Under the pieces are notes generated by a model. It was not told the DNA's origin. It did no database searches and was given only the letters and a program-made list of their open reading frames with translations. Positions 1-38,692 of a DNA stretch of 38,692 bases are shown piece after piece; positions within the stretch are counted from its first letter, which is position 1, and each line of letters starts with the position of its first letter. Both the position numbers and the translations under genes were made by a program. The stretch is from a bacterium (GTDB lineage Bacteria > Myxococcota_A > UBA9160 > UBA6930), in contig JAAETT010000550.1 in the NCBI GenBank assembly GCA_024228115.1, forward strand, positions 1-38,692, read 5' to 3'.

Positions 1-141
1 GGCGGAACGCTCCGCCCTCATCCAGGACGTGATCCGAGAGATGGGCGAACGGCTCGCGACCCCGGTCGGCGAGCGGCAGGTCACGCCGAAGGGGCTCCCG
101 GTGATTGAGCCATACGAGGTCGCGATCACCTACCGTGGGGA
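1..141. repeat. Terminal direct repeat, left copy (circular overlap)
   Basis: Bases 1-141 are identical to 38552-38692 at the other end of the window. A coding sequence runs uninterrupted through the joined ends, which is what a closed circular assembly gives. The length fits a k-mer-sized assembly overlap better than a biological terminal repeat; that choice is an inference. Confidence 0.95.
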
Positions 142-529: not shown

Positions 530-1165
530 ATGGCTAGACTTGACACGACCGGCCTACACGACGACATGATCCCGCTCGTGGAGGACTTCCACACCCGTTG
601 TGGGCGCGCGGGGCTTGATCTCCTGGTCTACTGCACACTCAGGACAGGGAGCCAGCAGGCCCGCATCTGGCGCAAGGGGCGGGCCACATCGGACATCGAC
701 GGCGAGATCATGCGGGCCCGAGAATACCAGGGGCGCATACTGAGCGGCGCGGTGGAACCGAAGAGCCGGGACATCGCGCTCGCCCGCGCGGCGGAGAAGG
801 GCATACCCGATCTCGCGATGTTCGCCCCGGCGGAAACGGACGCGATCTCCGTGGCTAGGTTCCTCAACTGGTCTCTCGGGTGTATCCTCACCGTAGGACC
901 GCAGAAGGGCGCCACGATACGGACCAACGCGATGCCTGGGCGCTCGTCGCATCAATACGGTGTCGCGGTCGACGCGATCGTCCTGGACGACGGTAAGGCG
1001 CTCTGGGATGAGCCTGACGTGATACAGGAGATGGGCGAGCACGGCGAGGCAGCGGGACTCGAATGGGCGGGACGGTGGACGACGTTCCGAGAGCGGGTCC
1101 ACTTCCAACTGCCCGAATGGCAGGCGAGGATGAGGGAGCAGATTCCGGCGGGCGCTCCCAGATAG
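530..1165 (+). CDS. M15-family peptidase, probable endolysin
   Basis: This 211-residue protein carries the zinc-peptidase signature of the M15 family (D-Ala-D-Ala carboxypeptidase / L-Ala-D-Glu endopeptidase). The motif SSHQYGVAVD (residues 139-148) supplies His141 and Asp148, and HFQ at 191-193 supplies the third zinc ligand. An upstream YCTLRTGSQQARIWRKGR stretch (residues 34-51) matches the conserved strand and R-x-Q region, although the loop to the zinc site is longer than usual. Its role would be cleavage of peptidoglycan peptides at lysis. There is no signal peptide, so it needs a holin. The start is preceded by GAGAGGG. An unusual feature is its position between terminase and portal genes. 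Family assignment is firm; use in lysis is inferred. Confidence 0.85.
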   Translation: MARLDTTGLHDDMIPLVEDFHTRCGRAGLDLLVYCTLRTGSQQARIWRKGRATSDIDGEIMRAREYQGRILSGAVEPKSRDIALARAAEKGIPDLAMFAPAETDAISVARFLNWSLGCILTVGPQKGATIRTNAMPGRSSHQYGVAVDAIVLDDGKALWDEPDVIQEMGEHGEAAGLEWAGRWTTFRERVHFQLPEWQARMREQIPAGAPR

Positions 1166-10178: not shown

Positions 10179-10661
10179 ATGGCCCACTATACCCAGATAA
10201 CGGCGGCGGTCAGCCTGTTGGCTCCAAGCGGAGATCTAACGGCTCCGACGGCCGCGACCTTGGCAACCCCGACCACGCAGGAGGCCACGTTTGACCTGCG
10301 GATCGCCAAGGAACTCCTAGAGGCGACGGAACTCGGGGACGATTTCCGTCAGTATGCCCAGGGCGTTGGCGAGTGGGACGGGACAATCACGTTCCACTAT
10401 GATGCCGATGCCGTGGCAACGGGCCAGGACGAGCTCCTGGAGTGTATCCTGAGCGCGGACTTCGGCGGGACGCTCGCAAGCGCGGGCCAGATCCAGGTCA
10501 ACTTCTGGATCGACGCAGAGGCCGGGGCCGGGGCGAGCAAAGCCTACTATGGCGCGGTGTTCGTCGAGGACTTCAACATCAGCGTCGGCCGGGGCTTGTC
10601 CACGATGACCGTTCGGGTTCGTGGCAACGGCACGCCGAAGTATTCCGGGGTGCTACTCTAG
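10179..10661 (+). CDS. Tail tube-like protein 1
   Basis: This 160-residue protein is the first of two adjacent related proteins. It is beta-rich with one helix, the pattern of siphophage tube proteins, and contains the tube-like block KELLEATELGDDF (residues 44-56) followed by WDGTITFHYD. Its end, STMTVRVRGNGTPKYSG, is also tube-like. The next gene shares the opening MAHYT and the helix block. Both sit just before the assembly chaperones and tape measure, where the major tail protein gene is expected. Confidence 0.7.
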   Translation: MAHYTQITAAVSLLAPSGDLTAPTAATLATPTTQEATFDLRIAKELLEATELGDDFRQYAQGVGEWDGTITFHYDADAVATGQDELLECILSADFGGTLASAGQIQVNFWIDAEAGAGASKAYYGAVFVEDFNISVGRGLSTMTVRVRGNGTPKYSGVLL

Positions 10662-10673
10662 GGGGCGATCAGC

Positions 10674-11321
10674 ATGGCTCACTACACGGGGATTACCGGG
10701 GCCATCTACGTCCCGACTGGCGTCACGGACTTCGCGGCGGTCACGTTCGCGCAGATCGGGGCCACGGACTTCTACACGGTCCAGCAGGAATCCGTGCGGA
10801 TCACGCGGGCCTTCACCGACGCGGCGGTCGTTGGGGACTTCTCCCCGGCCGCCGGGTCTGTCGTCAGTCTCCAAAAGCCCATAGGCGTGATTGAGATCAG
10901 CGGGGCAGGCGCCACCGTGGCGGTCACGTCATCGAACAGCCGCGTCTACACGATGGCCAAGGTGGGGGGGTTCCACGAGTTCCGTCTCACGACGGCCATG
11001 GAGCTCATCGACGTGACGGAGTTTGAGGACGCGTTCGCCCAGTTCGAGAAGTCCGTCATCGGGTGGTCTGCCGTGTGTCAACGCCACTGGCAGGACGAGA
11101 ACCTCAGTCTGAATGTGGCGGCCACGATGAAGGCGATCGACGATGGCCACTTCCCCGTGGAGTTGTTCATCGCGCGCGGCTCGGGCCTCCGGCAGCGTTA
11201 CGTCGGGAACGCATACATCGAAGAATACGCGCTCGCGGGCCCGCGGTCCGGTCAGGTGACCGAAGCGACCATCACCATGAGGGGGGATGGTCAACTCTGG
11301 TATCGCAACCAGGACAACTAA
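10674..11321 (+). CDS. Tail tube-like protein 2 (paralogue of the preceding gene)
   Basis: This 215-residue protein opens MAHYTGITGA, close to MAHYTQITAA of the gene before it. It repeats the helix block as MELIDVTEFEDAF (109-121 against 44-56). Its end, EATITMRGDGQLWY, parallels the neighbour's ending. It has about 60 extra N-terminal residues forming further beta strands. One of the two probably builds the tube; the other could be a mixed-tube subunit or an initiator/terminator ring. Which is major cannot be told from sequence. Confidence 0.7.
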   Translation: MAHYTGITGAIYVPTGVTDFAAVTFAQIGATDFYTVQQESVRITRAFTDAAVVGDFSPAAGSVVSLQKPIGVIEISGAGATVAVTSSNSRVYTMAKVGGFHEFRLTTAMELIDVTEFEDAFAQFEKSVIGWSAVCQRHWQDENLSLNVAATMKAIDDGHFPVELFIARGSGLRQRYVGNAYIEEYALAGPRSGQVTEATITMRGDGQLWYRNQDN

Positions 11322-11920: not shown

Positions 11921-14737
11921 ATGGTCCGCGAGAACCTGGAATTCAACATCGACGGCGACGCGCGTGGATTCACGCGCGCCATGGACCAGGCGGCCCGCGC
12001 GTCGCGCGATCTCACCCGCATCCTCACGACACTCTCCCGGGACGGCGGGGAGCGGGCGGAGAAGTCCCTCGACGACGTTGGGGACTCCATGGACGACATG
12101 GGCGATGCGGCCCGCCGTTCGTCCAGACAGACCACGACGCTCACCGGCTCCGTTACGAAGCTCGCACTCCAGTTCAACCTGATAGACCGCGCCATCAATG
12201 TCGCGTCGCGCGCCCTGGAATCCATGGTCCGTGTCGCGGTCGACGCGCATCGCCAGGGCATAGGGCTCAATCTCGCGTTTCAGACCATGGAGGTCCGTCT
12301 CCAGGGCGTTGTCGGGAGCGCGCAGGGCGCTAAGGACGCGCTCTCAGCGTTCCGTGGGATCGCTGCTACCACGGCATTCTCCGTCCAGGACGTGAGCGAG
12401 GCCGGGACCACGCTGGCCGCGTTCATGGGCGGCGAGTTCACGAAGAACGTCGAGGGGACGACGAAGGCGGTCGCGGACCTGGCCGCCTTCATGGGCCTCA
12501 GTGCGACTGAGGCCGCGGCGGCCATGGGGCGCGCGTTCGCCGGTGGCGCGGGCGCGGCCGACATCCTGCGTGAGCGTGGCGTCCTGAACCTCATCAAGTC
12601 GTTCAAGGGGATTGACGATCTCACGAAGCTCACGCTCCCGCAGTTCCGTGAGGCCATGCTCGACACGATGGTCAACACGACGGGGCCGATAGCGGGCGCG
12701 ACTGACAGAATGTCAGAGACCACGGTCGGCGCGATCTCCAACATGGGGGACGCGTGGCAGAACTTCACGACCGAGCTAACGGCGGAAGCCATGCCCGCCA
12801 TCGGTGAGTTCGCGCGGGCCGTGACGGATGTGTTCAAGCTCGCGGCCGAAGAGATGACGGGCGAGGAAGGACTCTCGAAGGCGATCGAGCGTCTGGCCCA
12901 GGACATCCGCACACACGGTCCAGAGATCGCGAAGGACATCAAGGGCATTGCGGACGCCGTGGCGGCTCTGGGAACGGCGCTCGCTCTGATTCCCGACTTC
13001 ATCCGAGTCGCCATTGACGTGTCTTCTGGGCAGCAGGGCGGCTCGGTGGCGGAGATCATCGGCCGGGAGATGGCGCTTCGTGCGACCGAGAGTCAGCGCA
13101 CGAGGGAAGCGGCCATGCCCGCGCGCCTGGCCGCGCTCCAGGCGCAGACGTTCCCCGGCGGGTTCGACGTCGGCGGACGCCCGCCTACGCCTGGCCGCGT
13201 TCGGGCGCAACGGGAAGCGGAGCGGATCCGATTCCGATCCGCGCAAGCAGCGGCGGAGGCAGCGGCAACGGTCGAGGAACAGACGGGACGGGCGCGGTTC
13301 CTTCCGACGATGCCGAGTCAGCGCGCGCGTGGGGCCGCGATGGGCGGGATTACGGCCCCGCGTTCCCTGCTTCCTCGCACGCCGGACCTGGCGCTCCATG
13401 GTCTCAGACAAGCATTGGGGCCGCGCGGGCTCGCGGGCGGAGTGATCCCCGAAGCCGGTGGGCAGGCGCGGGAGACGTTTGGGCCATTCGCCAGGGGCCC
13501 GGCAGTAGCAGGCGTGCCGCTCGGGCCTGGCGAGTTCGACCCGCAAGGGAACTTGCTCATCCGGGAGCAGGCACTACGGGCAGAGCACGAGGCCGTTAAG
13601 GCGGTTGTGGAGCAGTCGCGCACATTCACGACGCAGATGGGCGCTGTTCAGGGCGCGTTCCGGGGAGTGGCGGAGACGTCGGACGACGCGGCAAAGGCCC
13701 AACTTCGGATGATGCGCGCGATTGACGTGGTATCCCAGAATCTCGGGGCGGCGCTCGGGCCCGAGGTAGGGCGCGCGGCATTCAGTTCGTTGGAAGCGGC
13801 GCGCATATTCCGCACTGAGGGCGCCACAACGGCGCAGAAGGTGGGCGCGGCCGGGCAAGCGGCTCAGGACGTGGGTGGGACGGTCGGAGGGCGTGAAGGC
13901 GAATACGTGGCCGCTGTGGGACGTGTCGCAGGGTCCACGGCCGCAGGCGCGGAAGCCGGTGGGGCGCCCGGAGCGATTGCGGCCGGGGGAATTCAACTCG
14001 GGGCAGAACTGATAGCCATCTTCCGACGCGGGAGCGAAGCCGCGAAGAAGATGCAGACGGCGATCGAAGGGTCGTTCGTGCAGATCGGGCAGCGCATCTC
14101 GACCCTCGTGGCCCAGGGATTCGAGTCCGGGGCCATCACGATGGCCGTCGACCAGATGGTTCGGGACATCGTGATCCAGACAGGCATTGCGCGGCTCGTG
14201 GAGGTGGCGCTGACGGAGCCGTTGAAGGAGCTAGGGGAAGCGGCGAAGGATTCCGACTTCGACGGGATGGCGAGCGCCTTCGAGGACATCAACGCGGCCA
14301 TTCCCGATCTCACGCGGAACATCAACACACTCGGGGACGTGATCGAAGGCGTGAACGCGCGGAACAAGCAACTCGTGGCGCTCGGAGGCGTGAAGGGTGG
14401 CGGCGTCTTGGGTGGTGAGGCAGCAACCCCGGCGGGTCTTACCGTGACGACCATATCCGGCGGGTTCCGTGACGTTCTCCAGCAACTCGGGAACCGGCGG
14501 GACAACTTGCTCACCGAGATCAGGGACGAACTGCGCGGAATGCGCGGAGGAATGGGGCTCGAGGCCGGGGACGTGGCCGCGGCTCCTGGTATTGGTGGTG
14601 GCGCTAACATCCAGGTCGAGCGCGTGGAGGTGCAACAGGTGGCCGACATGGCGGACCTGGACGCAGTGATCGCGGATCAGTTCGATGTCGGTATGGGTCG
14701 GCAGTTCGCGAGAGCGAAGCGCAGGAGGGGGCGCTAA
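11921..14737 (+). CDS. Tail tape measure protein
   Basis: This 938-residue protein is the longest in the genome and lies directly after the chaperone pair. Early residues form Ala/Arg-rich helices. Residues about 130-225 contain the conserved tape measure region with AFRGIAATTAFSVQDVSEAG, ATEAAAAMGRAFAGGAGAAD and LRERGVL. The middle is rich in Gly, Ala, Pro and Arg, and a small-residue hydrophobic stretch occurs around 680-700. The protein sets tail length; 938 residues would predict a tail of roughly 140 nm by the usual 0.15 nm per residue rule. The stop overlaps the next start (TAATG). Confidence 0.9.
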   Translation: MVRENLEFNIDGDARGFTRAMDQAARASRDLTRILTTLSRDGGERAEKSLDDVGDSMDDMGDAARRSSRQTTTLTGSVTKLALQFNLIDRAINVASRALESMVRVAVDAHRQGIGLNLAFQTMEVRLQGVVGSAQGAKDALSAFRGIAATTAFSVQDVSEAGTTLAAFMGGEFTKNVEGTTKAVADLAAFMGLSATEAAAAMGRAFAGGAGAADILRERGVLNLIKSFKGIDDLTKLTLPQFREAMLDTMVNTTGPIAGATDRMSETTVGAISNMGDAWQNFTTELTAEAMPAIGEFARAVTDVFKLAAEEMTGEEGLSKAIERLAQDIRTHGPEIAKDIKGIADAVAALGTALALIPDFIRVAIDVSSGQQGGSVAEIIGREMALRATESQRTREAAMPARLAALQAQTFPGGFDVGGRPPTPGRVRAQREAERIRFRSAQAAAEAAATVEEQTGRARFLPTMPSQRARGAAMGGITAPRSLLPRTPDLALHGLRQALGPRGLAGGVIPEAGGQARETFGPFARGPAVAGVPLGPGEFDPQGNLLIREQALRAEHEAVKAVVEQSRTFTTQMGAVQGAFRGVAETSDDAAKAQLRMMRAIDVVSQNLGAALGPEVGRAAFSSLEAARIFRTEGATTAQKVGAAGQAAQDVGGTVGGREGEYVAAVGRVAGSTAAGAEAGGAPGAIAAGGIQLGAELIAIFRRGSEAAKKMQTAIEGSFVQIGQRISTLVAQGFESGAITMAVDQMVRDIVIQTGIARLVEVALTEPLKELGEAAKDSDFDGMASAFEDINAAIPDLTRNINTLGDVIEGVNARNKQLVALGGVKGGGVLGGEAATPAGLTVTTISGGFRDVLQQLGNRRDNLLTEIRDELRGMRGGMGLEAGDVAAAPGIGGGANIQVERVEVQQVADMADLDAVIADQFDVGMGRQFARAKRRRGR

Positions 14738-16032
14738 TGGCTCGCCTGACGATCTCCGCAGGGACAACGGCCTACAACTACCCGGATGGGTTCGACATCG
14801 TTCGGGAGAACACCATAACCCGCACGGAGAGCCAGAATATCGCGGGCCGCATGGGTTCCTATATCCGGTCTCACGGGAACCCCATCGGGGAGAAGTCCCT
14901 TACGGTGTTTGGGCGCCTCATTGGCGCGGATGCCAGCGACCTAGACACGAAGACTTACGAGTTCATGCGCGTTCACACCTTCGGGACGGGGATGCAACTC
15001 ACGGACAATACGCTCTCGCGCCACGCGATCGCGTGGCTCGCAGGGATTCAATACACCGACCGGCGCCACGCGTTTATTCGCGAGGTGACGATCCGCTTCG
15101 TCCTTCCTGGTGGCGTCTGGGGAGTGGACGACGCCTTCGTCCCGGCCGTTACCACGGCGGGCATCACATCCACGCAACTCGTCCGCTATGCTCACCCGCT
15201 ATACGGTGGGAGCGCCCCGGGCCCCGCCCAGTTAGTCCTTACGCCGGGCGCCGGGACATGGCCCGCATCCGGGGATGGTGAGGTGATATGGCGCGGGCGG
15301 AACCTTATCGTGAATTCGAGCCTTGAGGAAGGTGTCGGAGCGAAGCCCGATGACTGGGACACGATCGGCGGCGGGAGCAATCCCGACGTGGTAGAGTGGT
15401 TCGGGCGCTCGGGACAACGCTGTGTCAAGATCAGCAAGCCTGGCGGGACGAATTACGCCCTATCCCAGGATGTGAATTGCGATGCGTCCACGGAATACAC
15501 CTATTCGGTGTATGCGGCCCTGCCATCGGGAGCCACGGGGAATCTCACCCTTTTGATTCAGTCCCGCGATAGCGGCGGCGGGTTTCTATCGAACACCACG
15601 CAGAACTTTGCCGTCACTGAGTCCTCGTGGACGCGGTTCGAGGTGACGCATACGACCGACGCGAGCGCGGCGCTTCTCCGCTGTATCTTCCGATGTGTGA
15701 GCACGGGCGAAGAGGTATACGTCGATGATGTGCAGTTGGAACGGGCCGGAACGGTCGGGGAGTTCATCGACACGAGCCTACCCCGTTACAAGCACATCAC
15801 GTTCAAACTGGAGAGCCCAGGGCAACTGGCATTCGCCACCACGGACAGCCTCTCGATTGACTGTGTGAGAGCGCGGACCCGTCTCCTACGGTCGGGCTCG
15901 TGGCAGGAGAACAACGACGAGGTGAACGGCCACTATTTCGAGCTCGTCCCCGGCCTGAATCACATCGAGTTTACAGAGCCGTCCTCGGGAACCCTGGCCG
16001 TCGAGATACGGCACAGGGATCTGTTCCTCTAG
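14737..16032 (+). CDS. Distal tail protein with inserted carbohydrate-binding-like domain
   Basis: This 431-residue protein follows the tape measure, the position of Dit. Residues 1-150 contain the N-terminal belt-like part (SLTVFGRLIGADASDLDTKT). Residues about 189-345 form a separate beta-sandwich resembling CBM4/9-like modules, beginning NLIVNSSLEEG and including WDTIGGG, STEYTYSVYAALPSG and the closing VYVDDVQLERAG. The remainder returns to the Dit-like core. Such evolved Dit proteins form the baseplate hub and bind host glycans. The module is recognised by pattern; the ligand is unknown. Confidence 0.75.
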   Translation: MARLTISAGTTAYNYPDGFDIVRENTITRTESQNIAGRMGSYIRSHGNPIGEKSLTVFGRLIGADASDLDTKTYEFMRVHTFGTGMQLTDNTLSRHAIAWLAGIQYTDRRHAFIREVTIRFVLPGGVWGVDDAFVPAVTTAGITSTQLVRYAHPLYGGSAPGPAQLVLTPGAGTWPASGDGEVIWRGRNLIVNSSLEEGVGAKPDDWDTIGGGSNPDVVEWFGRSGQRCVKISKPGGTNYALSQDVNCDASTEYTYSVYAALPSGATGNLTLLIQSRDSGGGFLSNTTQNFAVTESSWTRFEVTHTTDASAALLRCIFRCVSTGEEVYVDDVQLERAGTVGEFIDTSLPRYKHITFKLESPGQLAFATTDSLSIDCVRARTRLLRSGSWQENNDEVNGHYFELVPGLNHIEFTEPSSGTLAVEIRHRDLFL

Positions 16033-16041
16033 GGGCGTGAG

Positions 16042-17991
16042 ATGCCGTATTCAATCCACGTCTACAACCGGGCGAACTCATCCCGCTCGGAACAACTCCA
16101 GAACGCCACGGGGATTCAGTTCCGCCGTAGTAATCGGGGGACGGAAGAGATCCGCTTCAGCGTGCCCCGCGACGACACCCAGATCAGTCTACTGACTCAC
16201 GGGATCGTGGTCCGGGTTTATGAGACGGAGACCGAGACGGATCTCGCCGTGGGGCAAATCTCCGGCATCATCAACCTGGGGAACGGCCCTCTGGTTCAGT
16301 TCGAGGCCGAGGGGTTGTGGGCCCGGATGGCGACGGTGGTATTCCCGACGGACTACGTTCTGAGCGGGGACATCTCGTCGGCGGACAACGCGCTCCGACT
16401 CACCCAGGCCTACGACATCCGGCGCATCACGTCCACGAACCCAAGTGACGCGACCCATGATGGCGACGAGATGGTCTCCTGGGACGGGAACTCCGCAGGA
16501 ACCACCCAGGAGAAGGCCGCGAAGACGAATACGATCACGTGGGACATCGTTCGCGAGGACGCCACTGAGGACGCCACGGGATCCCTCACACTGGATGGGA
16601 CGAGCGACAACGATGGGGATGGGATCAACGAGATCCCGCCATTCTCCGCCAGCGGGACATACGAGAGCCCGTTCTATGACTTCGTGAGCGCCCCGGATGA
16701 TACCGACCGTCTCCGCTTCGATGGGCAATACGATGAGGGCGAGGTCACATGGGCCGTTGCGACGTTCGCGGCCCTCACCGATGCGCGGACCTTCCCCGCG
16801 GCCTCGGCGGCGACATTCCCCGGCGGCGTGGGTGAGGATCTGACAGGCCTAACGGCGCGCCGCTTCATGGCGGTGGAGTTCACGCTCGCGGCGAATGACT
16901 CCGCGCGGAAGACTCCGGCCGTGTTCTGGTTCGAGCTCATCACGCGGCGCGACATCTCCGGGATCAGCGCGGGGACGATCGTGTCCCAGACGGTTGAGGA
17001 TAACTTCACCGTCGGGGGCCTCAGTCTGGTGGCGGCCCTGGAGCAGATCGCTGAGTCGTATGATCTGGAGTGGCGGGTCCAGGGGGACGGCACGGTCGAC
17101 ATGCAGGCGAAGCCCGCCAGCGGCGCCGTGGGCGCCACCTGGGGGACTGACCGACGGGACACGTATCACCTGATTGAGGGGCACCACTGCAACCTCGTGA
17201 ACTACGAGAAGGACGATGGGAAACTCGTCAACTACTTGATCGCCACGGGGACCGGCGCCGGAGGGAACGCCCTCACCATCATCGCCCAGGACGCGACGAG
17301 TCAGACCAGTTTCGGAATGCGGCAAGCAGTGGTGGGGTTCAACGCGGACACGATGGCGGAACTAAAGACCGAGGCCGACGCCTACTTATCCGAGTTTAAG
17401 GATCCGCGCGTCAGCATGGTCCTGGAAGTGGGGGAGACCCCGGACGAGCAAGTCCCTGTGTTCGCTCCGGGCGATCTCATCTCGGTGTCGTCGTTCCTGA
17501 ACAAGAACCACGACGGGGCCGACATCGCGGAGGACTTCCGCATCCTGGAAGAGACCCGCACGGCCACCGATGGCGGGATACGGGTCCGGTTGCGGCTGGA
17601 GAACAAGCCCGCGCCGTTCATGGAGGAACTTGGGGAGACCCTGGACCATCTGGGGAACGCCGTCGAGAACTCTATCGAGCGGTCCCAGATGGGGATAGCC
17701 ATCACGCCGGAACGATCGGACGGGGCAATCTACGACGAGGACGTTCTCCTAGACTTCACACCGTTTGAGGACGCATCGGGCGCCTATGTCGTGACGATTG
17801 AGGACACGACGGCGGGGCAGTTCTACGGTCCCGAAGAGAGCGCCACTGTGGTCCGTGTCGTGGACTATCGAATCCTGGAGCGGACGCTCACAATACGCTA
17901 CGAGCGCACATCAGGGAGCAACGCCTACAAGGCCCACATATTCTGGTGGGCCAACGGGCGGATATATCGTGGTAGTAGGGTGGGGCGATGA
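16042..17991 (+). CDS. Baseplate hub / tail-associated protein (gp37/Tal-like)
   Basis: This 649-residue protein follows Dit, where siphophages encode the tail-associated hub. Its N-terminus (HVYNRANSSRSEQLQNATGI) and the beta-rich repeats are hub-like. The central block LSLVAALEQIAESYDLEWRV with later LRLENKP is typical of gp27-like hub domains that thread the tape measure. A DNDGDG acidic cluster near residue 190 could bind calcium. The C-terminus is beta-rich. No peptidase motif was seen. The stop overlaps the next gene as ATGA, coupling it to the glycosyltransferase. Confidence 0.7.
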   Translation: MPYSIHVYNRANSSRSEQLQNATGIQFRRSNRGTEEIRFSVPRDDTQISLLTHGIVVRVYETETETDLAVGQISGIINLGNGPLVQFEAEGLWARMATVVFPTDYVLSGDISSADNALRLTQAYDIRRITSTNPSDATHDGDEMVSWDGNSAGTTQEKAAKTNTITWDIVREDATEDATGSLTLDGTSDNDGDGINEIPPFSASGTYESPFYDFVSAPDDTDRLRFDGQYDEGEVTWAVATFAALTDARTFPAASAATFPGGVGEDLTGLTARRFMAVEFTLAANDSARKTPAVFWFELITRRDISGISAGTIVSQTVEDNFTVGGLSLVAALEQIAESYDLEWRVQGDGTVDMQAKPASGAVGATWGTDRRDTYHLIEGHHCNLVNYEKDDGKLVNYLIATGTGAGGNALTIIAQDATSQTSFGMRQAVVGFNADTMAELKTEADAYLSEFKDPRVSMVLEVGETPDEQVPVFAPGDLISVSSFLNKNHDGADIAEDFRILEETRTATDGGIRVRLRLENKPAPFMEELGETLDHLGNAVENSIERSQMGIAITPERSDGAIYDEDVLLDFTPFEDASGAYVVTIEDTTAGQFYGPEESATVVRVVDYRILERTLTIRYERTSGSNAYKAHIFWWANGRIYRGSRVGR

Positions 17992-20129
17992 GATTGCAGC
18001 GAATCCCTCTCACGTTCCGCAACCGCATCACGGGGGATCTGGCCCATACCACCATACCCGGGGCCCATGGGGGGAAGTCCCCGGACGCGCTACTCGCGCT
18101 CTGTCGGCGCCCCGCTCACACATGGTCCCTGGTAGGGCGCTCCAGAGGCTCGCCCCAGCCTGGTCCCGGGTCAAACCTGTCCGCACGGATCGGGATCGTG
18201 TTGGGGACGGCGTGGCCCGACATCATTGGTGGTGGCGAACTCGTGTGGCGGGACATCGGGATCCACATGCAGCGCCTCGGGTTCGATGTGCATGTGTTTG
18301 CTTCGTCCCGCGCCTCCTACGGATCCGGGACGCTCCGACCAGTGGCCGAGATCGAGACCGCCACCGTGGCGGGTATGGCGTATCACTACGTCCCCGAGGC
18401 CAGCATCATCGCCAACGTGCAGGACTGGGCCCGTGAGGCGCGGCCGTCTGCAATCTGGACCACGTTCGGATGGGATGTTGTCCAGGCCGCGCGTCTCACG
18501 AGTCTCAGGGGAATGGCTCCGTTGGTCGTATATCAGCAGTTCTGGCAAGGGCTGGATGCGGACACGTTCGCGGTCCCCGAGGGCGTGGAGTTCCGTCCCG
18601 AGTGGGCGGAGATCTTCGCCCAGGCGGACACGTTGGTCGCTAACAGTGGATATGCCGCACGTCGGTTCGCGCACGCGTCGCAGAGTGAGGTGCCAGTCAT
18701 CACGCCTCCGACTGACGACGCTCTCGGGGAGTCGAGCCGGGACGGCGCCGTCCTACTGGTAGGGTCTGGTCCCGAGAAGGGGACCGACGTGTTCCGGCGC
18801 GTGGCGGCCGAGTTCCCGGACCACGAGTTCATTATCATTGGTGAGGCCCCGGACACACTTGGGCCGAACTGTTCTAGCATCGGATGGGCGGATCCCCGGC
18901 CCTACTACCAGACTGCGCGGGCCCTGTTGGCGCCGTCACTCGTGGCCGAGACCTACGGGATGGCCGTGGAAGAGGCCCGCAAGTGGGGAATACCCACGAT
19001 CGTGAGCAACAACGGGGCCCTGGCGGATCATGCTGAGATCGTCCTCAGCACTGCGCGAGTTGGCGACTGGATTGAGGCCACGGCGCGCGTGCTGGACGGG
19101 GATTGCCGAGTGGCCGGGGCCGTGATGAGGAAGCAGGACGCGCTCCGTGGACTGGAGGCCGTGATGACACGCGCAAACACGCGACCCCTGAGCGGGGAGA
19201 CGTTCCCGTCGATCGCCACCTACTCGGGCGGGGATGGCACATCCGTGGACTACGCAAGCCGGGCCATGCTCGAGATGTTCGGCCTGAGCCACTACACGGG
19301 CGGGGACATCCCGGACGGTGTGCAGCATGTTCTACTCCAGGCATGGTCCCCAGCCCATGCTTCGTTGTTCTCCCGCCTGCGGTCTCAGGGCGTGCATCCC
19401 TGGGTGGTGGTCCACTCGCCCGCAGCTCAGGGCGAACTTGACGGCGAACACCGGGTGTTCTCAGAAGTCATGCCCCTTGGGTCGGGTCATATTCTGGCCT
19501 GTCATGCGCCATTGGCGAAGGCCTTGGGCGCTCGATGGCTACCAGTTCCGACGCTGGTGGACGAGCTCGCGCCACATCGGCGGGGGCCACGGCGGCCGGG
19601 GGCTTCGATCTCTGTAGGAATGTGGAACACCTGGCGGCCGCGAAAGAACACCTGGACCCAAGTCCTCGCCATGCGAGAACTGGCGCGCATCAGCGGGCGC
19701 GAGGTGGTGATTCATGGTCCAATGGTCGACGCGGACTTATGCCATGCACTCGGCGGAGACGTGCGATTCATCCAGACGGAACACGTCTCGCGGCGCGAGT
19801 TCTATGAACGTATGGCGGACATGGACCTGAGTCTCCAGGTAACCCACGCGGAGAGTTTCAACTATTGCGCGATGGAGTCAACGCTCCTGGGCGTGCCGTG
19901 TCTCGTGGGGCCGGGAACACCGGCGGGCCGGTTCGGGCTCGAGGCGGCGTTCGTCGTGGCGGATCCCACGGACCCGATCCTCATCGCTCAGATGGCGCAC
20001 AAGGCAATACAGGACGCGGAGCGGTGCTGGTTCCACGAGCGGATGATCCGCTCCGCTCAGGATCTCGTGGACTACCGCCACCGAGGACTGCGGGATACAC
20101 TGGAAGCAATCGAGAGGGGCGGAGCATGA
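17988..20129 (+). CDS. Double-domain GT-B glycosyltransferase
   Basis: This 713-residue protein carries two GT4-like GT-B units in one chain. Unit one starts near residue 67 (ARIGIVLGTAW, then GGGELVWRDIG) and has the nucleotide-sugar site motif ETYGMAVEE (321-329, EX7E) after a glycine-rich VLLVGSGPEKG turn. Unit two covers about 410-713 and has ESFNYCAME (622-630, also EX7E) followed by LLGVPCLVG. Residues 1-66 are a basic, proline-rich extension of unknown role. The ATGA start overlaps the hub gene. The enzyme would transfer sugars from nucleotide donors; acceptor and sugars are unknown. An internal start near residue 67 has no visible ribosome site. Confidence 0.85.
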   Translation: MRLQRIPLTFRNRITGDLAHTTIPGAHGGKSPDALLALCRRPAHTWSLVGRSRGSPQPGPGSNLSARIGIVLGTAWPDIIGGGELVWRDIGIHMQRLGFDVHVFASSRASYGSGTLRPVAEIETATVAGMAYHYVPEASIIANVQDWAREARPSAIWTTFGWDVVQAARLTSLRGMAPLVVYQQFWQGLDADTFAVPEGVEFRPEWAEIFAQADTLVANSGYAARRFAHASQSEVPVITPPTDDALGESSRDGAVLLVGSGPEKGTDVFRRVAAEFPDHEFIIIGEAPDTLGPNCSSIGWADPRPYYQTARALLAPSLVAETYGMAVEEARKWGIPTIVSNNGALADHAEIVLSTARVGDWIEATARVLDGDCRVAGAVMRKQDALRGLEAVMTRANTRPLSGETFPSIATYSGGDGTSVDYASRAMLEMFGLSHYTGGDIPDGVQHVLLQAWSPAHASLFSRLRSQGVHPWVVVHSPAAQGELDGEHRVFSEVMPLGSGHILACHAPLAKALGARWLPVPTLVDELAPHRRGPRRPGASISVGMWNTWRPRKNTWTQVLAMRELARISGREVVIHGPMVDADLCHALGGDVRFIQTEHVSRREFYERMADMDLSLQVTHAESFNYCAMESTLLGVPCLVGPGTPAGRFGLEAAFVVADPTDPILIAQMAHKAIQDAERCWFHERMIRSAQDLVDYRHRGLRDTLEAIERGGA

Positions 20130-21223
20130 GGATTGTATTCGGCGTCTATTACTCCATGGGGGACAACGCGAGCTCCGGGATCTACACGGCCCTCCGGGCC
20201 GCCGGTCACGAGGTCAGCGTCTTCCCGCGCCTGGCAGAACAGGATGCGGGCCGGGTCGCAGGAGAGGACACCGGAGCCTATGTGCTGGAGTCCTTGTCGC
20301 GGCGCGTGGCCCTCCTAGACGCGAACGTTCTCCTGGCGCGCTCCCTGTCGGCGTTCTTCCCCACGGTTCGGGATCTCCACGAGTTCCGCGCGCGTCATCC
20401 CGGCGTCAAGCTCGTGGACCTGAGCCAATACCACCCGTATTCGCTCTATGAGTCCTTCGTCGGGGACATGAGCGCGGTGGCGAAGACGGGCGACTATGAC
20501 ATGCTTCTATGCCAATGCCACAACAGCATTGCCCACCTGGCGGGATACAACGCGCACGCGGTCTACTATCCGAGCTTCGCGACGCCACTCCTATACGATC
20601 GGATCCCCGGCGCGGAACGCTCGCGGCTGGCGTGTGATGTTCTCATGCCCTGGAACTCCGACTATGACACGGACCAGTTCCCCACGGACATCTGTCGTAA
20701 GAGCCTAGTGAACGAGTGCCTAGACGGTGGGGTCACGAATATCCGCATCTATGGCGGAGACGCCGAGCCCACGCGTAACCTGTGGCTCCAGGCGGATCCC
20801 GAGTTCTCGCCCTACGTTCGTCCAGCGGCGGATGTGCGACTTATTGCCCGCGTGATGGCGAGCGCGAAGATCGTGCTATCGTCGTCGGTGATCTCCGCGA
20901 ATTCGGTGGTGGCTCCCCTGGGGTATTGGTCGGATCGCGTCCCCTGCGCGATGCTTGCCGGCAGCCTGGTCCTGTCAGATAACCGGGAATCAGTCACGGC
21001 GCCATGGACCGTTGGCGGGGAGACGCGGCAACTGGTCGACGGGGAACATCTGGTGCTGTATGACACCGAGGCCGAGGCCGTGGACAAGGCCCGCTACTAC
21101 CTGGACAACCCAAAGGAACGGCAGCGCATCGCGCAGGCGGGATATGAATTCGCTCATGCTCATCTGGTCGAGGATGAGATCGTCCCGGGGATCATTCTCC
21201 CTGCCATCGAGGCGCTATTCTAG
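20126..21223 (+). CDS. CgeB-like glycosyltransferase
   Basis: The start at 20126 gives an ATGA overlap and is preceded by GAGAGGGGCGGAGC; the reading frame is open further upstream but only as a shadow of the previous gene. The 365-residue protein begins MRIVFGVYYSMGDNASSGIY, a GT-B N-terminal nucleotide-fold strand. It ends with a CgeB/PF13524-like half (LYDTEAEAVDKARYYLDNPK, then an AQAGYEFAHAHL helix). It probably extends or branches the glycan made by the preceding double enzyme. Family assignment is moderately secure; substrate is unknown. Confidence 0.75.
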   Translation: MRIVFGVYYSMGDNASSGIYTALRAAGHEVSVFPRLAEQDAGRVAGEDTGAYVLESLSRRVALLDANVLLARSLSAFFPTVRDLHEFRARHPGVKLVDLSQYHPYSLYESFVGDMSAVAKTGDYDMLLCQCHNSIAHLAGYNAHAVYYPSFATPLLYDRIPGAERSRLACDVLMPWNSDYDTDQFPTDICRKSLVNECLDGGVTNIRIYGGDAEPTRNLWLQADPEFSPYVRPAADVRLIARVMASAKIVLSSSVISANSVVAPLGYWSDRVPCAMLAGSLVLSDNRESVTAPWTVGGETRQLVDGEHLVLYDTEAEAVDKARYYLDNPKERQRIAQAGYEFAHAHLVEDEIVPGIILPAIEALF

Positions 21224-21234
21224 GAGGGCGCGTG

Positions 21235-21735
21235 ATGGCGTTCGGCCTGGCCAGCGGGTTCGCCCCACCACCGAGCGACGGCATATTCTCGTTTGTCCCT
21301 GTCCTGGCGCCTCTCCTTGCGCGCATGGCGGAGCAAGGCGGCGCATATCTGGAGTGGGGGATGGGGCGCTCGACGCGGATGGCGCTCCAGGCCGGGATTC
21401 AGGTAGTGAGCGTAGAGCATGATCCCCATTGGTTCAACTACTTCATGGACGAACACCGGGGCCATCCGAACCTGACGGCCCACCTACTGGCGGACCTGGA
21501 CCAGTATGTCGCGATCGCACGCACGGCCCCGGCTAATACGGGACTCATCTTCGTGGATGGGGTCGCGCGCCCGGAATGCTTGGTGGCCGCGAGCCAGGTG
21601 ATTCCGCGACTCGCGTCCCGCTGCGATGTGCTGTTGCACGATGCCCGCGACCCGGCGTATGTGGACGCCATCGGCATCTATCAGCATACGGAGTATCCCG
21701 AAGGGGACACCGACACGCTACTACTGACCCTGTGA
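21235..21735 (+). CDS. Class I methyltransferase-like protein of the glycan module
   Basis: The 166-residue protein has the Rossmann methyltransferase pattern. Motif I is seen as YLEWGMGRSTRMAL, motif II as VVSVEHDPHWFNYF (acidic residue after the second strand), and LIFVDGVAR follows as the fourth strand. It is short for a methyltransferase, so it may be a minimal domain. The ATG at 21235 is 7 bases after AGGAGG. It follows the glycosyltransferases by 11 bases and could methylate a sugar. An alternative is a degenerate, non-catalytic family member. Confidence 0.65.
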   Translation: MAFGLASGFAPPPSDGIFSFVPVLAPLLARMAEQGGAYLEWGMGRSTRMALQAGIQVVSVEHDPHWFNYFMDEHRGHPNLTAHLLADLDQYVAIARTAPANTGLIFVDGVARPECLVAASQVIPRLASRCDVLLHDARDPAYVDAIGIYQHTEYPEGDTDTLLLTL

Positions 21736-21753: not shown

Positions 21754-22068
21754 ATGCTGTTCATACTGAACGCGCCCAGAACGGAGCCCGTGACCCGGGC
21801 CCCGGCCTATGACGGGAACATCATCGGGGTCTACTCATCCACGGGGGACGTGGTGGCGGCGCATGGCATGAGTCGCGCCGAGGGCCGGTCAATCATCATC
21901 GTCCCAGAGAGCGGGGACACGTATGATGCGGGGTGGGATGCGGAGGTCGCGCTCGCGGCGGCCGACATCTCGGTGCGGGTGGATCCCGTGCAGAATGAAC
22001 TCATCGAGGCGCGCGGGTTCCTCGCGTGCGTGGCGGCGGGCGAACTCGACAACGCGCCCACGGAATAG
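21754..22068 (+). CDS. Small hypothetical protein after the glycan module
   Basis: This 104-residue protein has AAGAGG before its ATG and sits between the methyltransferase and the last structural gene. It shows alternating beta strands and helices (IIGVYSSTGDVVAAHGMSR, RSIIIVPESGD, AALAAADISVRVDP arrangement) and an acidic C-terminus. I recognise no family. It may be an accessory of the glycan module or of the following virion protein. Confidence 0.6.
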   Translation: MLFILNAPRTEPVTRAPAYDGNIIGVYSSTGDVVAAHGMSRAEGRSIIIVPESGDTYDAGWDAEVALAAADISVRVDPVQNELIEARGFLACVAAGELDNAPTE

Positions 22069-23694: not shown

Positions 23695-23906
23695 GTTGTC
23701 CCCTTCGTGGGCTTGGGCGTGACGAGAGCCTTGAGGCGGCCCCGTAGGAGTGTCATCTCGTCCGCCTGGTCAACCAGAGCGTCGCGATCGGCGCCCTCGC
23801 CCAAGCTGACGTATGCCTTTTTGCGCGTTCCGTCCTCCGTGGTCATCAGAGCGGCGATCAGGACCGTGACATCGCGCGTGGTGAGAATGGGTCGATGGCG
23901 TTTCAC
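23691..23906 (-). CDS. Small hypothetical protein
   Basis: This 71-residue protein lies between the methyltransferase and the ASCH gene with 4-base overlaps to both, so it is part of the leftward operon. It has a helical middle (ADRDALVDQADEMTLLRGRL) with basic ends. No family is recognised. Confidence 0.6.
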   Translation of the reverse strand: MKRHRPILTTRDVTVLIAALMTTEDGTRKKAYVSLGEGADRDALVDQADEMTLLRGRLKALVTPKPTKGTT

Positions 23907-24823
23907 GTGGCGTCTCCTTCGTCGGTGAATAGGAGTGTCTGGCGCGAGTCAGATCGCGCCGACGTTACCGGGCTCTCCAGGGCTCGATACGATACGGGGT
24001 TGTGGATGCGTTGGGCCGCCCTTCCAGTCGAGTAGGTCCAGCGATCCAGAATCAGACCAACATACTCGGGGTTCTGTTCGATCGTGATGCAGACGCGCCC
24101 CAGTTCCTCACATGCCATGAGCGTCGTCCCCGACCCGCCGAACGGGTCCACGACGACATCGCCCTCGTCGGAGGATGCGTCGATCAGTGTGCGGATGAGC
24201 GCGATCGGCTTCTGTGTGGGATGGTTCACGGACTCGGCGGTTCCCGCTCCGGCCGCGAGCGCGGGCACGACGATCACATCCCGTGGCTGGGCTCCGTCTG
24301 GATGGCGCCGGAACGGGACGCCTGGGAAGCGCCCAGACCCGGACCCGGTATGCCCCGACTTCGTTCCGGGGAAGTAGGGGACGCGGGCCCGGTCGCGGTA
24401 GAATGGCGCATCCCCGCGCCGGACATAGATGATCGCGTCGTGTGAACGTCCCCACGTGCCGACATTCGGGGTATTCCGGTTCGTGTAGTGCCAGATGAGC
24501 CAGCGTTTCGGCGGGGAGACGCGGACGAAGGGCTCCGCCAACGTCTCCGCCTGGCCGAACACATACGCTGAGTGGTCAGGGGACATGCACTCGCCGAGAA
24601 TGTTCCACCACGCAAGCCACCATTCCGTGTATTCCGGGATGCGGTCCCATTCCGCGATGCCGATGTTGTAGGGCGGATCGGCCACCATGAGACGCGGCGC
24701 GATGGGGATGCCATCGACGGATACGAACGCCTCCTCTAGGAGGGCGGGATACGTGCAGTCTCCGCACAGAACGCGATGGGGCCCCAGGTGCCACACATCC
24801 CCGATCTGAATCTCAGGCATCAT
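23903..24823 (-). CDS. DNA methyltransferase (beta-type N6-adenine/N4-cytosine), orphan
   Basis: The 306-residue protein has motif IV as ADPPY (Asp49-Tyr52) before motif I as DPFGGSGTT (226-234), the order of beta-class amino-methyltransferases, plus HPTQKP (201-206). DPPY favours N6-adenine methylation. The N-terminal GDVWHLGPHRVLCGDCT resembles the ParB-linked phage methylases and also the second methylase of this phage. The start is placed at 24823 because upstream residues lie over the previous gene in another frame. No restriction enzyme lies nearby. The likely job is to protect phage DNA against host restriction; the recognised sequence is unknown. Confidence 0.85.
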   Translation of the reverse strand: MMPEIQIGDVWHLGPHRVLCGDCTYPALLEEAFVSVDGIPIAPRLMVADPPYNIGIAEWDRIPEYTEWWLAWWNILGECMSPDHSAYVFGQAETLAEPFVRVSPPKRWLIWHYTNRNTPNVGTWGRSHDAIIYVRRGDAPFYRDRARVPYFPGTKSGHTGSGSGRFPGVPFRRHPDGAQPRDVIVVPALAAGAGTAESVNHPTQKPIALIRTLIDASSDEGDVVVDPFGGSGTTLMACEELGRVCITIEQNPEYVGLILDRWTYSTGRAAQRIHNPVSYRALESPVTSARSDSRQTLLFTDEGDAT

Positions 24824-25250
24824 TCGCGGCCGCGTCGTCTGGATGTTGCCCGTAGGATGCGACCCACGCATCCCCGCATGGTATACAGACCGCCGTCGGT
24901 GGGGCATGGGCCCATTCAAGGCAGACACGCAACTGCTCGCGGGTGAAGACACCGGCACATAAGGCGCATTCGATTCCGTCAACGGCCCCCTCTTCCTCGA
25001 ATCCCTCCGTGTCTGCGAATGTGAGGCCCGTGGAGAGAACCCCGCGCGCCCATGCCATGCTGAGGGCATTGACCTGTGTCTCCATCTCATCGCCGTAGTG
25101 CTGCTGTATTCCGGCCATCACGAACGCGCCCTCCGTGGCGGCCTCGTCCGAAGTAACCGGCCAGGGGAGTTGGTCGAGACGCCACTCGCGGCCCTCGTTC
25201 TCTACGAAGGCCACGAGAGCGACATCCAGTGTGGGGACGCACGCGATCAT
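24813..25250 (-). CDS. Hypothetical protein with zinc-ribbon-like Cys pairs
   Basis: This 145-residue acidic protein has CALCAGVF at about residue 96 and CIPCGD near 123, two CxxC pairs that could bind a zinc ion. The stop overlaps the methyltransferase start and its own start overlaps the previous stop (ATGA). No family is recognised. Its place in the early operon suggests a role in DNA or host takeover functions, without direct evidence. Confidence 0.65.
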   Translation of the reverse strand: MIACVPTLDVALVAFVENEGREWRLDQLPWPVTSDEAATEGAFVMAGIQQHYGDEMETQVNALSMAWARGVLSTGLTFADTEGFEEEGAVDGIECALCAGVFTREQLRVCLEWAHAPPTAVCIPCGDAWVASYGQHPDDAAANDA

Positions 25251-33938: not shown

Positions 33939-34591
33939 TGAACGGCTGGGACCAGTGGACTGACCCCGTGATTGCGCTCACGCTGTTCGTGCAGCGATAT
34001 GAGCGGAACATGAGCGCGGCGCCCTATGACGCCACGCGCGCGATTCTCCTGCGGCCCAAGGTTGAGGCGTGGCGGGTGAAGTTCCACGCGCATGAGGCGA
34101 AAGTCCGCGAGTGGGGAGAGCAGGCCGGGCCCATGCCGTCTACCCGTGACGGACGGGTCGACTACTTGCGGCGCATGTCGGAGTTAGGACGGGGGCCGCG
34201 AAAGCCGCTGGAGTATTCCGGCATGTGCCGATGGTGTGGGTCCACTGATCTGCCGAAGGGGCGCCGCTCCTACTGTTCCGATGAGTGCAAGCAGGAGACC
34301 GTGATCCGCTTCGTCCCTGGATACGCGAGGACGATCGTGGGGCGCCGAGACAGGTGGACGTGCCAGATCTGCGGGGACAAGGGCCGCGACTGCGATCACA
34401 TCGTCCCCGTTTCTGAGGGCGGGGGATGCTGTGGCCTGGACAACCTGCGGATTCTCTGCTCCGCGTGTCACGGGAAGGAGTCCGGGAAGCTACGGAAACG
34501 ACTCAACGCGGCAAAGCGCGAGATCGAGGAAGCGGCGGCGCCGCAGCTCGTGTTTCGCCTGGACCCCATCGCAGACACAGGGACGGCATGA
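33938..34591 (+). CDS. HNH endonuclease with an added zinc ribbon
   Basis: The gene starts with GTG after AGGAGCGGATA. The 217-residue product has two zinc modules. The first is CRWCGSTDLPKGRRSYCSDE (97-116), with Cys97, Cys100, Cys113 and Cys117. The second is the HNH core CQICGDKGRDCDHIVPVSEG (142-161), with Asp153-His154, then LDNLRILCSACHGKESGK bearing Asn169 and His178. Such enzymes act in packaging or as mobile endonucleases. No sign of intron or mobile ends was seen, so a phage-own role is more likely. Confidence 0.85.
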   Translation: MNGWDQWTDPVIALTLFVQRYERNMSAAPYDATRAILLRPKVEAWRVKFHAHEAKVREWGEQAGPMPSTRDGRVDYLRRMSELGRGPRKPLEYSGMCRWCGSTDLPKGRRSYCSDECKQETVIRFVPGYARTIVGRRDRWTCQICGDKGRDCDHIVPVSEGGGCCGLDNLRILCSACHGKESGKLRKRLNAAKREIEEAAAPQLVFRLDPIADTGTA

Positions 34592-35505
34592 TGCAGACTG
34601 AGCTCTGGCCGGTGGAGATACGTGAAGATCCGCCGCTGCCGCCGTTACGTCGGGAGACCGTTGTGGTGCCTGGGGATGTGTGGGGCGTTGGCGACCACCG
34701 GATCATGTGCGGGGACGCCACCGACGCGGACCAGGTTCTCACGCTCACCCGCGACCGGCGCCTCATCTGCGTGACGAGCCCACCCTACGGTGACCAACGC
34801 GACTACGGCGGGGGCAACCTGGACCCATCTCACCTGGCGCAGTTCATCGGGGCCGTGTGGCCCCGGTGTGATGTGTTCGCGATCAATCTCGGGATCGTGC
34901 GGCGTGGTCGCGAGATCGTGTGCTACTGGGACCACTACATCGAGGCCGCGCGCCAGCATGGCGGGCGGCTGCTCTCGTGGAACGTGTGGGATCGAAGCGG
35001 AGGCGGCTACACCGTGGGGCAGCTTAACGGGATGTTCCCGATCGACCACGAGTTCATCATCGTCTTAGGCGAACCCAGGGAACTGAATCTCACGATCCCG
35101 AATGCCACGGCCGGGCAGAGGCAATCACCAGCGACCGTGCGAGAGCAGGACGGCCGCACGAAGTCCCGACGAGCGCACGTGACGAGGCCGCATCGCCCAC
35201 TCGGCAGCGTGATCCACACAGCACGGGTAAAGGGCAACCCGAGCGATGGGCATCCGGCGCCATTCCCGCCAGAGATTCCAGAGGCCTATATCGCGGCGAT
35301 CATCCAGGACGGCGAGAGCGTATACGATCCGTTCCTCGGGTCCGGGACCACGATGATCGCGGCGCATAACCTCGGGCAGGCGTGCATGGGAATGGAGATC
35401 GTCCCCGCGTATTGCGACATGGCGATCCGTCGAGTGCAACGCGCCACGGGAGCCACGGCAACCCGTGAGAGTGATGGAATGGAGTTCCCCGATGGGGACG
35501 TGTGA
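34588..35505 (+). CDS. Second DNA methyltransferase (SPPY type), orphan
   Basis: This 305-residue protein has motif IV as TSPPY (63-67), then motif I as DPFLGSGTT (247-255). SPPY is usual in N4-cytosine methylases, so it probably modifies a different base or site from the DPPY enzyme. Both share the opening GDVW-x-x-G-x-HR-x-x-CGD-x-T. The region between (about 75-240) would recognise DNA. The start overlaps the HNH stop (ATGA). No restriction partner is near. It probably guards phage DNA from host restriction. Confidence 0.85.
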   Translation: MMQTELWPVEIREDPPLPPLRRETVVVPGDVWGVGDHRIMCGDATDADQVLTLTRDRRLICVTSPPYGDQRDYGGGNLDPSHLAQFIGAVWPRCDVFAINLGIVRRGREIVCYWDHYIEAARQHGGRLLSWNVWDRSGGGYTVGQLNGMFPIDHEFIIVLGEPRELNLTIPNATAGQRQSPATVREQDGRTKSRRAHVTRPHRPLGSVIHTARVKGNPSDGHPAPFPPEIPEAYIAAIIQDGESVYDPFLGSGTTMIAAHNLGQACMGMEIVPAYCDMAIRRVQRATGATATRESDGMEFPDGDV

Positions 35506-38510: not shown

Positions 38511-38692
38511 ATGGCAAGGACTGAACGAGCGACGCGGCGCATCGAGACCGAGGCGGAACGCTCCGCCCTCATCCAGGACGTGATCCGAGAGATGGGCGAA
38601 CGGCTCGCGACCCCGGTCGGCGAGCGGCAGGTCACGCCGAAGGGGCTCCCGGTGATTGAGCCATACGAGGTCGCGATCACCTACCGTGGGGA
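38511..38692 (+). CDS. Hypothetical phage protein (5' part; gene spans the circular join)
   Basis: This is the 5' part of the 186-residue gene that continues at base 1. The ATG has TAGGAGGCAGCCAC upstream, a strong ribosome site. The first residues are MARTERATRRIETEAERSAL, a basic to acidic helix. In a linear reading the last 141 bases duplicate the window start. Confidence 0.75.
   Translation, partial: MARTERATRRIETEAERSALIQDVIREMGERLATPVGERQVTPKGLPVIEPYEVAITYRG
38552..38692. repeat. Terminal direct repeat, right copy (circular overlap)
   Basis: This is the second copy of the exact 141-base repeat that also opens the window. Removing one copy leaves a circle of 38,551 bp. No cos-like or long terminal repeat structure is visible at the join, so circular permutation by headful packaging is plausible but not shown. 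Confidence 0.95.

What the first reader, a model, noticed from the sequence alone, without database searches (positions are those of the whole stretch)
17988..21735. A glycan-building module embedded in the tail operon
A double GT-B enzyme with two EX7E sites, a CgeB-like glycosyltransferase and a methyltransferase-like protein follow the tail hub gene, and the first two joins are 4-base overlaps. They lie before the last virion gene. Their co-expression with tail genes suggests that the phage decorates its own tail or capsid, or alters host surface sugars late in infection. Two GTs in one chain with a sugar methylation partner is a set I do not know as a described phage system. This is my best candidate for a new system.
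Basis: partly seen in the sequence, partly recalled or inferred. Interest (0 to 1): 0.8.

Follow-up and report, generated by a model that had tools for sequence, protein, structure and literature searches.

The report
Phage tail-operon sugar-transferase gene pair
An uncultured phage carries, inside its tail-building operon, a two-in-one sugar-transferring enzyme and a second sugar transferase, a pair that a distant relative keeps in the same place, so the phage most likely coats its own particle with sugar in the way known for some mycobacterial phages; the third, methyl-transferring gene is an optional extra.

Summary
The window is a complete phage genome (exact 141-base terminal repeat, 38,551 bases circular). 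After the tail hub gene come a 713-aa protein with two GT-B glycosyltransferase (GT) units in one chain, a 365-aa CgeB-like GT and a small class I methyltransferase-fold protein. The first two joins are 4-base overlaps. The N-half GT is certain (Pfam 1.8e-12). The C-half has no Pfam match, but its five best bacterial profile matches are ordinary GT4 enzymes sharing its lysine and both glutamates. The bare EX7E spacing is no evidence: about two are expected by chance. In the only related contig spanning the site (IMGVR_UViG_3300022902_000075, about 60% identity), the two GT genes sit in the same place and order, and the methyltransferase gene is absent. The conserved unit is therefore the GT pair. 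The concept is described: Corndog has an O-methyltransferase and three GTs among its capsid genes, and virion glycosylation is reported for Che8, Corndog and Myrna. Streptomyces phage TurkishDelight has a two-site double GT between its capsid and tail genes. Best reading: a late, cytoplasmic virion-glycosylation module. New variant of a known kind; target and sugar unknown.

The parts
17988..20129 (+). 713-aa double GT-B glycosyltransferase: N-terminal mini-domain (res 1-51), GT unit 1 (about res 66-400), GT unit 2 (about res 400-713)
   Evidence: PF13692 1.8e-12 and PF00534 4.7e-8 in the N-half; C-half by homologues and conserved K/E/E; 60% identical full-length homologue in the same place in L019
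17988..18140 (+). Conserved N-terminal beta-beta-alpha-beta mini-domain of the double GT, function unknown
   Evidence: AF2 pLDDT about 75 overall and 81-90 for residues 11-50; no significant structural or sequence match
18948..18974 (+). EX7E site of GT unit 1 (E321...E329, ETYGMAVEE)
   Evidence: both glutamates invariant in the relative and in phage and bacterial GTs
19851..19877 (+). EX7E site of GT unit 2 (E622...E630, ESFNYCAME)
   Evidence: both glutamates and K553 invariant in the relative and in five bacterial GT4 proteins
20126..21223 (+). 365-aa CgeB-like (PF13524) glycosyltransferase
   Evidence: PF13524 9.2e-13; homologue in L019 54.5% identical, PF13524 1.8e-11
21235..21735 (+). 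166-aa class I SAM-dependent methyltransferase-fold protein (Methyltransf_24-like); optional, absent in the relative
   Evidence: PF13578 6e-5, below cutoff; bacterial homologues 22-32% identical, 5 of 6 aligned members match PF13578; absent in L019
16042..17991 (+). Tail hub-like gene directly upstream; overlaps the double GT start by 4 bases
   Evidence: phrog_1887 tail protein, weak, E 0.0027; 67% identical in L019
14737..16032 (+). Distal tail (Dit-like) protein with a carbohydrate-binding domain
   Evidence: PF02018 2.2e-6, SPP1_Dit 0.004, phrog_33 7.3e-5
21754..22068 (+). 104-aa protein downstream, conserved in the relative directly after the CgeB-like gene
   Evidence: 56.9% identical in L019
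22081..22830 (+). Last gene of the operon, phrog_8198; follows tail genes in unrelated phage contigs too
   Evidence: phrog_8198 2.4e-34; 63% identical in L019; L014-L017

Best explanation
A late-expressed virion-glycosylation module. The GT genes are translated together with the tail genes, through stop/start overlaps with the tail hub. In the cytoplasm of the infected cell the CgeB-like enzyme and the two active sites of the fused enzyme transfer host nucleotide-sugars one after another onto a side chain of an abundant virion protein (major capsid or tail tube protein most likely, or a tail-tip protein), building a short glycan of two or three sugars on assembling particles. In this phage the extra methyltransferase probably caps or varies the glycan by O-methylation; the related phage does without it. 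Shown here: gene identities, catalytic residues, operon position, conservation of the GT pair. Inferred: protein target, order of reactions, sugar identity, methyl cap, and benefit (shielding, stability or adsorption).
For: Two GT-B units with intact K/E/E residues and a CgeB-like GT. None of the three proteins has a membrane-helix-like stretch (maximum 19-residue hydropathy 1.24-1.51), so they look cytoplasmic. Same place and order in a relative with about 55-60% identical proteins; the GT-GT/CgeB-like overlap is kept there too. No internal sigma-70-type promoter match between 14000 and 23300, and codon use close to the neighbouring virion genes. Precedents: Corndog gp35-gp38 in the structural operon, seen in infected cells but not identified in the virions (PMC4351075); glycans on capsid and tail tube subunits of mycobacteriophages, and Che8 gp110 and Corndog gp38 named as essential for capsid glycosylation (PMC12619734, PMC12363180); TurkishDelight gp20 between major capsid and major tail genes.
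Against: No direct evidence for the target or any activity. No acceptor motif was found or tested. Only one related contig spans the region, so conservation rests on two genomes. The enzymes show no detectable homology to any mycobacteriophage GT. The late tail-operon position would also fit a late host-surface function.
Confidence: 0.55

Rival explanations
1. Host-surface modification late in infection: the GTs and methyltransferase alter lipopolysaccharide, capsule or another surface glycan so that new phages do not stick to debris and competing phages are excluded.
For: The closest bacterial relatives of the units are GT4 and CgeB-like enzymes of the kind used in cell-envelope glycan synthesis. 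Phage GTs that change host serotype are known (PMC12619734).
Against: No flippase-like or other membrane partner of the gtr type next to the genes and no membrane-helix-like stretch in them. No integrase or repressor recognised among the genes scanned, so no sign of lysogenic conversion. Expression tied to tail genes comes late for remodelling a surface.
Confidence: 0.25
2. DNA hypermodification: the GTs glycosylate modified bases in the phage genome to resist restriction.
For: Viral GTs that hypermodify DNA are known (Pyle 2024, cited in PMC12619734). The genome carries two DNA methylase genes.
Against: No base hydroxylase, thymidylate-synthase-like or other base-premodifying gene among the genes scanned (not every small ORF was scanned). 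Placement in the tail operon rather than the replication block.
Confidence: 0.06
3. The GT proteins are themselves parts of the tail tip (glycan-binding or glycan-modifying receptor proteins): the conserved N-terminal mini-domain anchors the double GT to the hub, in the place where other phages keep a tail fibre.
For: Position directly after the hub, where the distant phages L016 and L017 have a 1,497- and an at least 1,426-residue protein before the phrog_8198 gene; no such long protein in the window between hub and phrog_8198; conserved N-terminal mini-domain of unknown fold relation.
Against: Both active sites are intact, as in free enzymes. The Dit-like protein already has a carbohydrate-binding domain. 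The mini-domain has no match to any virion protein. Corndog GTs were not identified in virions (PMC4351075).
Confidence: 0.08

Closest known systems
Mycobacteriophage virion-glycosylation genes (Corndog gp35-gp38; Che8 gp110; Myrna)
   Same: Several GTs, and in Corndog an O-methyltransferase, as a block inside the virion structural operon; predicted modification of virion proteins, later reported experimentally for Che8, Corndog and Myrna (PMC4351075, PMC12363180, PMC12619734).
   Different: The Corndog block lies between portal and protease, here it follows the tail hub; Corndog uses separate small GTs, here two GT units are fused and a CgeB-like enzyme is added. No tblastn match to any mycobacteriophage gene. 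Virion glycosylation is untested here.
Streptomyces phage TurkishDelight gp20 (NC_073473, 678 aa)
   Same: Two GT-B units with two EX7E sites in one chain (ESYGRVGVE, ESFGMAAVE), gene between major capsid and major tail genes; the best phage match to the 713-aa protein (38% over 104 residues).
   Different: Its two halves are recognisable duplicates (36.6% identity), whereas the halves here share no blastp similarity. No CgeB-like or methyltransferase gene annotated in the stretch viewed. Function untested.
CgeB-like glycosyltransferases (PF13524)
   Same: Second gene matches PF13524 over the nucleotide-sugar-binding half.
   Different: The position usually glutamate in RxFE is C (window) or M (relative); bacterial homologues vary there too (E, D, G, Q).
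Methyltransf_24-like class I methyltransferases
   Same: Keeps the SAM-site LEWGxGxSTR, the following acidic E62, DG and D motifs.
   Different: Shorter (166 aa), below the Pfam cutoff; the substrate is unknown, so 'sugar O-methyltransferase' is a guess.

Membership tests
GT-B / GT4-type glycosyltransferase, unit 1 (res 66-400) | Significant match to GT group 1 profiles with EX7E in the nucleotide-sugar-binding half | tested here: met
   PF13692 1.8e-12, PF00534 4.7e-8; E321 and E329 invariant
GT-B / GT4-type glycosyltransferase, unit 2 (res 400-713) | Homology to GT4 proteins and conserved K and EX7E glutamates | tested here: met
   Five long-ORF bacterial profile hits, the best in the search, are GTs; R, K, E, E invariant; weak by Pfam alone (0.13)
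GT-B / GT4-type glycosyltransferase, both units | Double Rossmann (GT-B) fold | tested here: inconclusive
   AF2 with two sequences gave pLDDT 36
CgeB-like GT (PF13524) | Profile score above the curated cutoff | tested here: met
   48.8 bits against cutoff 25; relative 44.6 bits
Class I SAM methyltransferase (Methyltransf_24) | Profile score above cutoff and SAM-binding motif | tested here: inconclusive
   24.3 bits against cutoff 26.3; SAM motif and bacterial homologues support it
Phage virion-glycosylation system (Corndog/Che8 type) | GT genes inside the virion structural operon | tested here: met
   Between tail hub and last tail gene, in two genomes
Phage virion-glycosylation system (Corndog/Che8 type) | GT homologous to Che8 gp110, Corndog gp38 or Myrna GT | tested here: inconclusive
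   No mycobacteriophage hit by tblastn at E up to 1 for the CgeB-like GT, the methyltransferase and the C-half, or up to 1e-5 for the whole 713-aa protein; but the two Corndog accessions tried were not in the collection, so no direct comparison was made
Phage virion-glycosylation system (Corndog/Che8 type) | Glycan present on virion proteins | not testable with these tools
   needs mass spectrometry of virions

The most novel reading that the evidence does not exclude
The N-terminal mini-domain docks the two-site GT onto the tail hub or another tail protein, so that a 'two sugars per docking' enzyme glycosylates the tail tip during assembly, or stays in the virion and acts on host surface glycans at adsorption.
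Probability: 0.07. Interest if true: 0.65.

Novelty: new variant of a known kind. Interest (0 to 1): 0.42.

Why it matters
If true, virion glycosylation encoded from within the structural operon is not confined to the mycobacteriophages in which it has been shown, but has arisen with unrelated enzymes in an uncultured phage lineage, and can be packed as a two-site fused enzyme. It would point to virion glycans as a recurrent phage trait in nature, where antibody evasion cannot be the reason.

Tried and rejected
Structure of the 713-aa protein: AF2 with a two-row alignment failed (pLDDT 36), so no fold search was made on it. Fold search of the N-terminal mini-domain against PDB and BFVD: nothing significant (best E 1.2 and 0.05). 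Viral-contig scans with the double GT, CgeB-like GT, C-half and tail hub found only the one relative. Genome-contig scans with the double GT and capsid alignments found no relative. Same-phylum genome searches found no second copy of the module or of the hub. EX7E spacing as evidence: rejected, about two expected by chance. Recent acquisition of the GTs from a host: not supported, codon use is near that of neighbours (lowest in the C-half) and a divergent relative has them. Bacterial loci from the genome search were not sent to structure prediction because its rule does not list them.

Full report
WHAT THE WINDOW IS. The window is a whole contig (C550) of a 6.4-Mb, 700-contig genome bin. Its first and last 141 bases are identical, so it is a complete phage genome of 38,551 bases, circular as assembled. 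The genes recognised are those of a tailed phage: endolysin, portal, protease, major capsid, neck genes, tape measure, Dit-like and hub-like tail genes, large terminase, RecT-like and DnaC-like proteins, RusA-like and HNH nucleases. No integrase was recognised among the genes scanned.

THE OBSERVATION. The third gene probably starts at ATG 21235, six bases after AGGAGGG (21222-21228), which overlaps the stop of the second gene. The EX7E spacing by itself is worthless, since 2.1 are expected in a protein of this composition and a third, meaningless one is present at residue 564. What makes the two sites real is homology. Unit 1 is a GT by Pfam. Unit 2 is not found by Pfam (E 0.13). It matches a GT profile by hhalign exactly over the EX7E region (E 0.0026, but hhalign probability only 11%). 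Its only phage hits are GT genes of Stenotrophomonas phages (E 0.02). Its five best hits among bacterial long ORFs are all clear GT4 proteins, with an arginine, a lysine and both glutamates invariant across the alignment. No one of these is decisive; together I take the double GT as established by sequence. The fold itself was not obtained.

CONSERVATION. The capsid gene found four related IMG/VR contigs at 79-85% identity. Only one, IMGVR_UViG_3300022902_000075 (L012, L019), reaches the region. There the order is hub (67% identical), double GT (60%, full length), CgeB-like GT (54.5%, same ATGA overlap), the 104-residue gene (57%) and the phrog_8198 gene (63%). The hub and double GT do not overlap there; the start follows the stop directly. 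The methyltransferase gene is missing. The CgeB-like gene there runs on through CAGGAGGG, where the window has TAGGAGGG followed by the extra gene. So the GT pair is an old part of the tail operon of this lineage, and the methyltransferase is an accessory gained in one line or lost in the other; two genomes cannot say which.

THE METHYLTRANSFERASE. The Pfam hit is just under the curated cutoff (24.3 against 26.3 bits). Bacterial proteins 22-32% identical share LEWGxGxSTR, SVEHDPxW, DG and a later D, and five of the six aligned members, this one included, match Methyltransf_24. The fold assignment is good; the substrate is not known.

THE N-TERMINUS. Residues 1-51 of the double GT are a conserved small beta-beta-alpha-beta domain that lies outside the GT units. 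No sequence or structure match was found. It is the most distinctive unexplained piece.

HOW IT WORKS. The gene position, the translational coupling to the hub and the cytoplasmic enzymes fit glycosylation of virion proteins during assembly. Precedents are strong. Corndog has an O-methyltransferase, two GTs and a GlcNAc transferase between portal and protease; these were seen in infected cells but not identified in virions, and its authors proposed methyl and glycan modification of the capsid (PMC4351075). Later work reports glycans on capsid and tail tube subunits of mycobacteriophages and two GTs, Che8 gp110 and Corndog gp38, as essential for capsid glycosylation (PMC12619734, PMC12363180; the original paper, Freeman 2023, is not held). 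TurkishDelight gp20 is a double GT in the same kind of operon. Hence the idea 'the phage decorates its own particle' is the most likely reading but is not new. Target, sugar and methyl cap are inference. Host-surface modification is the main rival; DNA modification and a structural role are less likely.

VERDICT. A real, conserved two-gene GT module with an unusual two-site enzyme, in a phage lineage without close relatives among the phage records searched; new variant of a known kind, moderate interest.

Noticed in passing
window 1-141 and 38552-38692: Exact 141-base direct terminal repeat: the contig is a complete phage genome, circular as assembled, binned into a bacterial MAG.
   Followed up: yes
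window 14737-16032: Dit-like tail protein with an inserted CBM_4_9 carbohydrate-binding domain (residues 189-311), a likely receptor-binding element.
   Followed up: partly
window 17988-18140: Conserved N-terminal mini-domain (beta-beta-alpha-beta, AF2 pLDDT 81-90 for residues 11-50) on the double GT with no match in Pfam, PDB or BFVD.
   Followed up: partly
window 23903-25090 (-) and 34426-35505 (+): Two N6_N4-type DNA methylase genes in one 38.5-kb phage genome.
   Followed up: no
window 530-1165: Endolysin-like gene lies directly upstream of the portal gene instead of after the tail genes; the order is conserved in L010, L011 and L013.
   Followed up: no
window 10179-10661 and 10674-11321: Two neighbouring genes encode proteins that resemble each other (27% in cross-hits to L019), perhaps duplicated tail tube proteins.
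   Followed up: no
L016 2801-7294; L017 2-4282: Distant phages sharing the phrog_8198 gene carry a very long protein (1,497 aa; at least 1,426 aa), probably a tail fibre, upstream of it, where this phage has the GT genes.
   Followed up: partly
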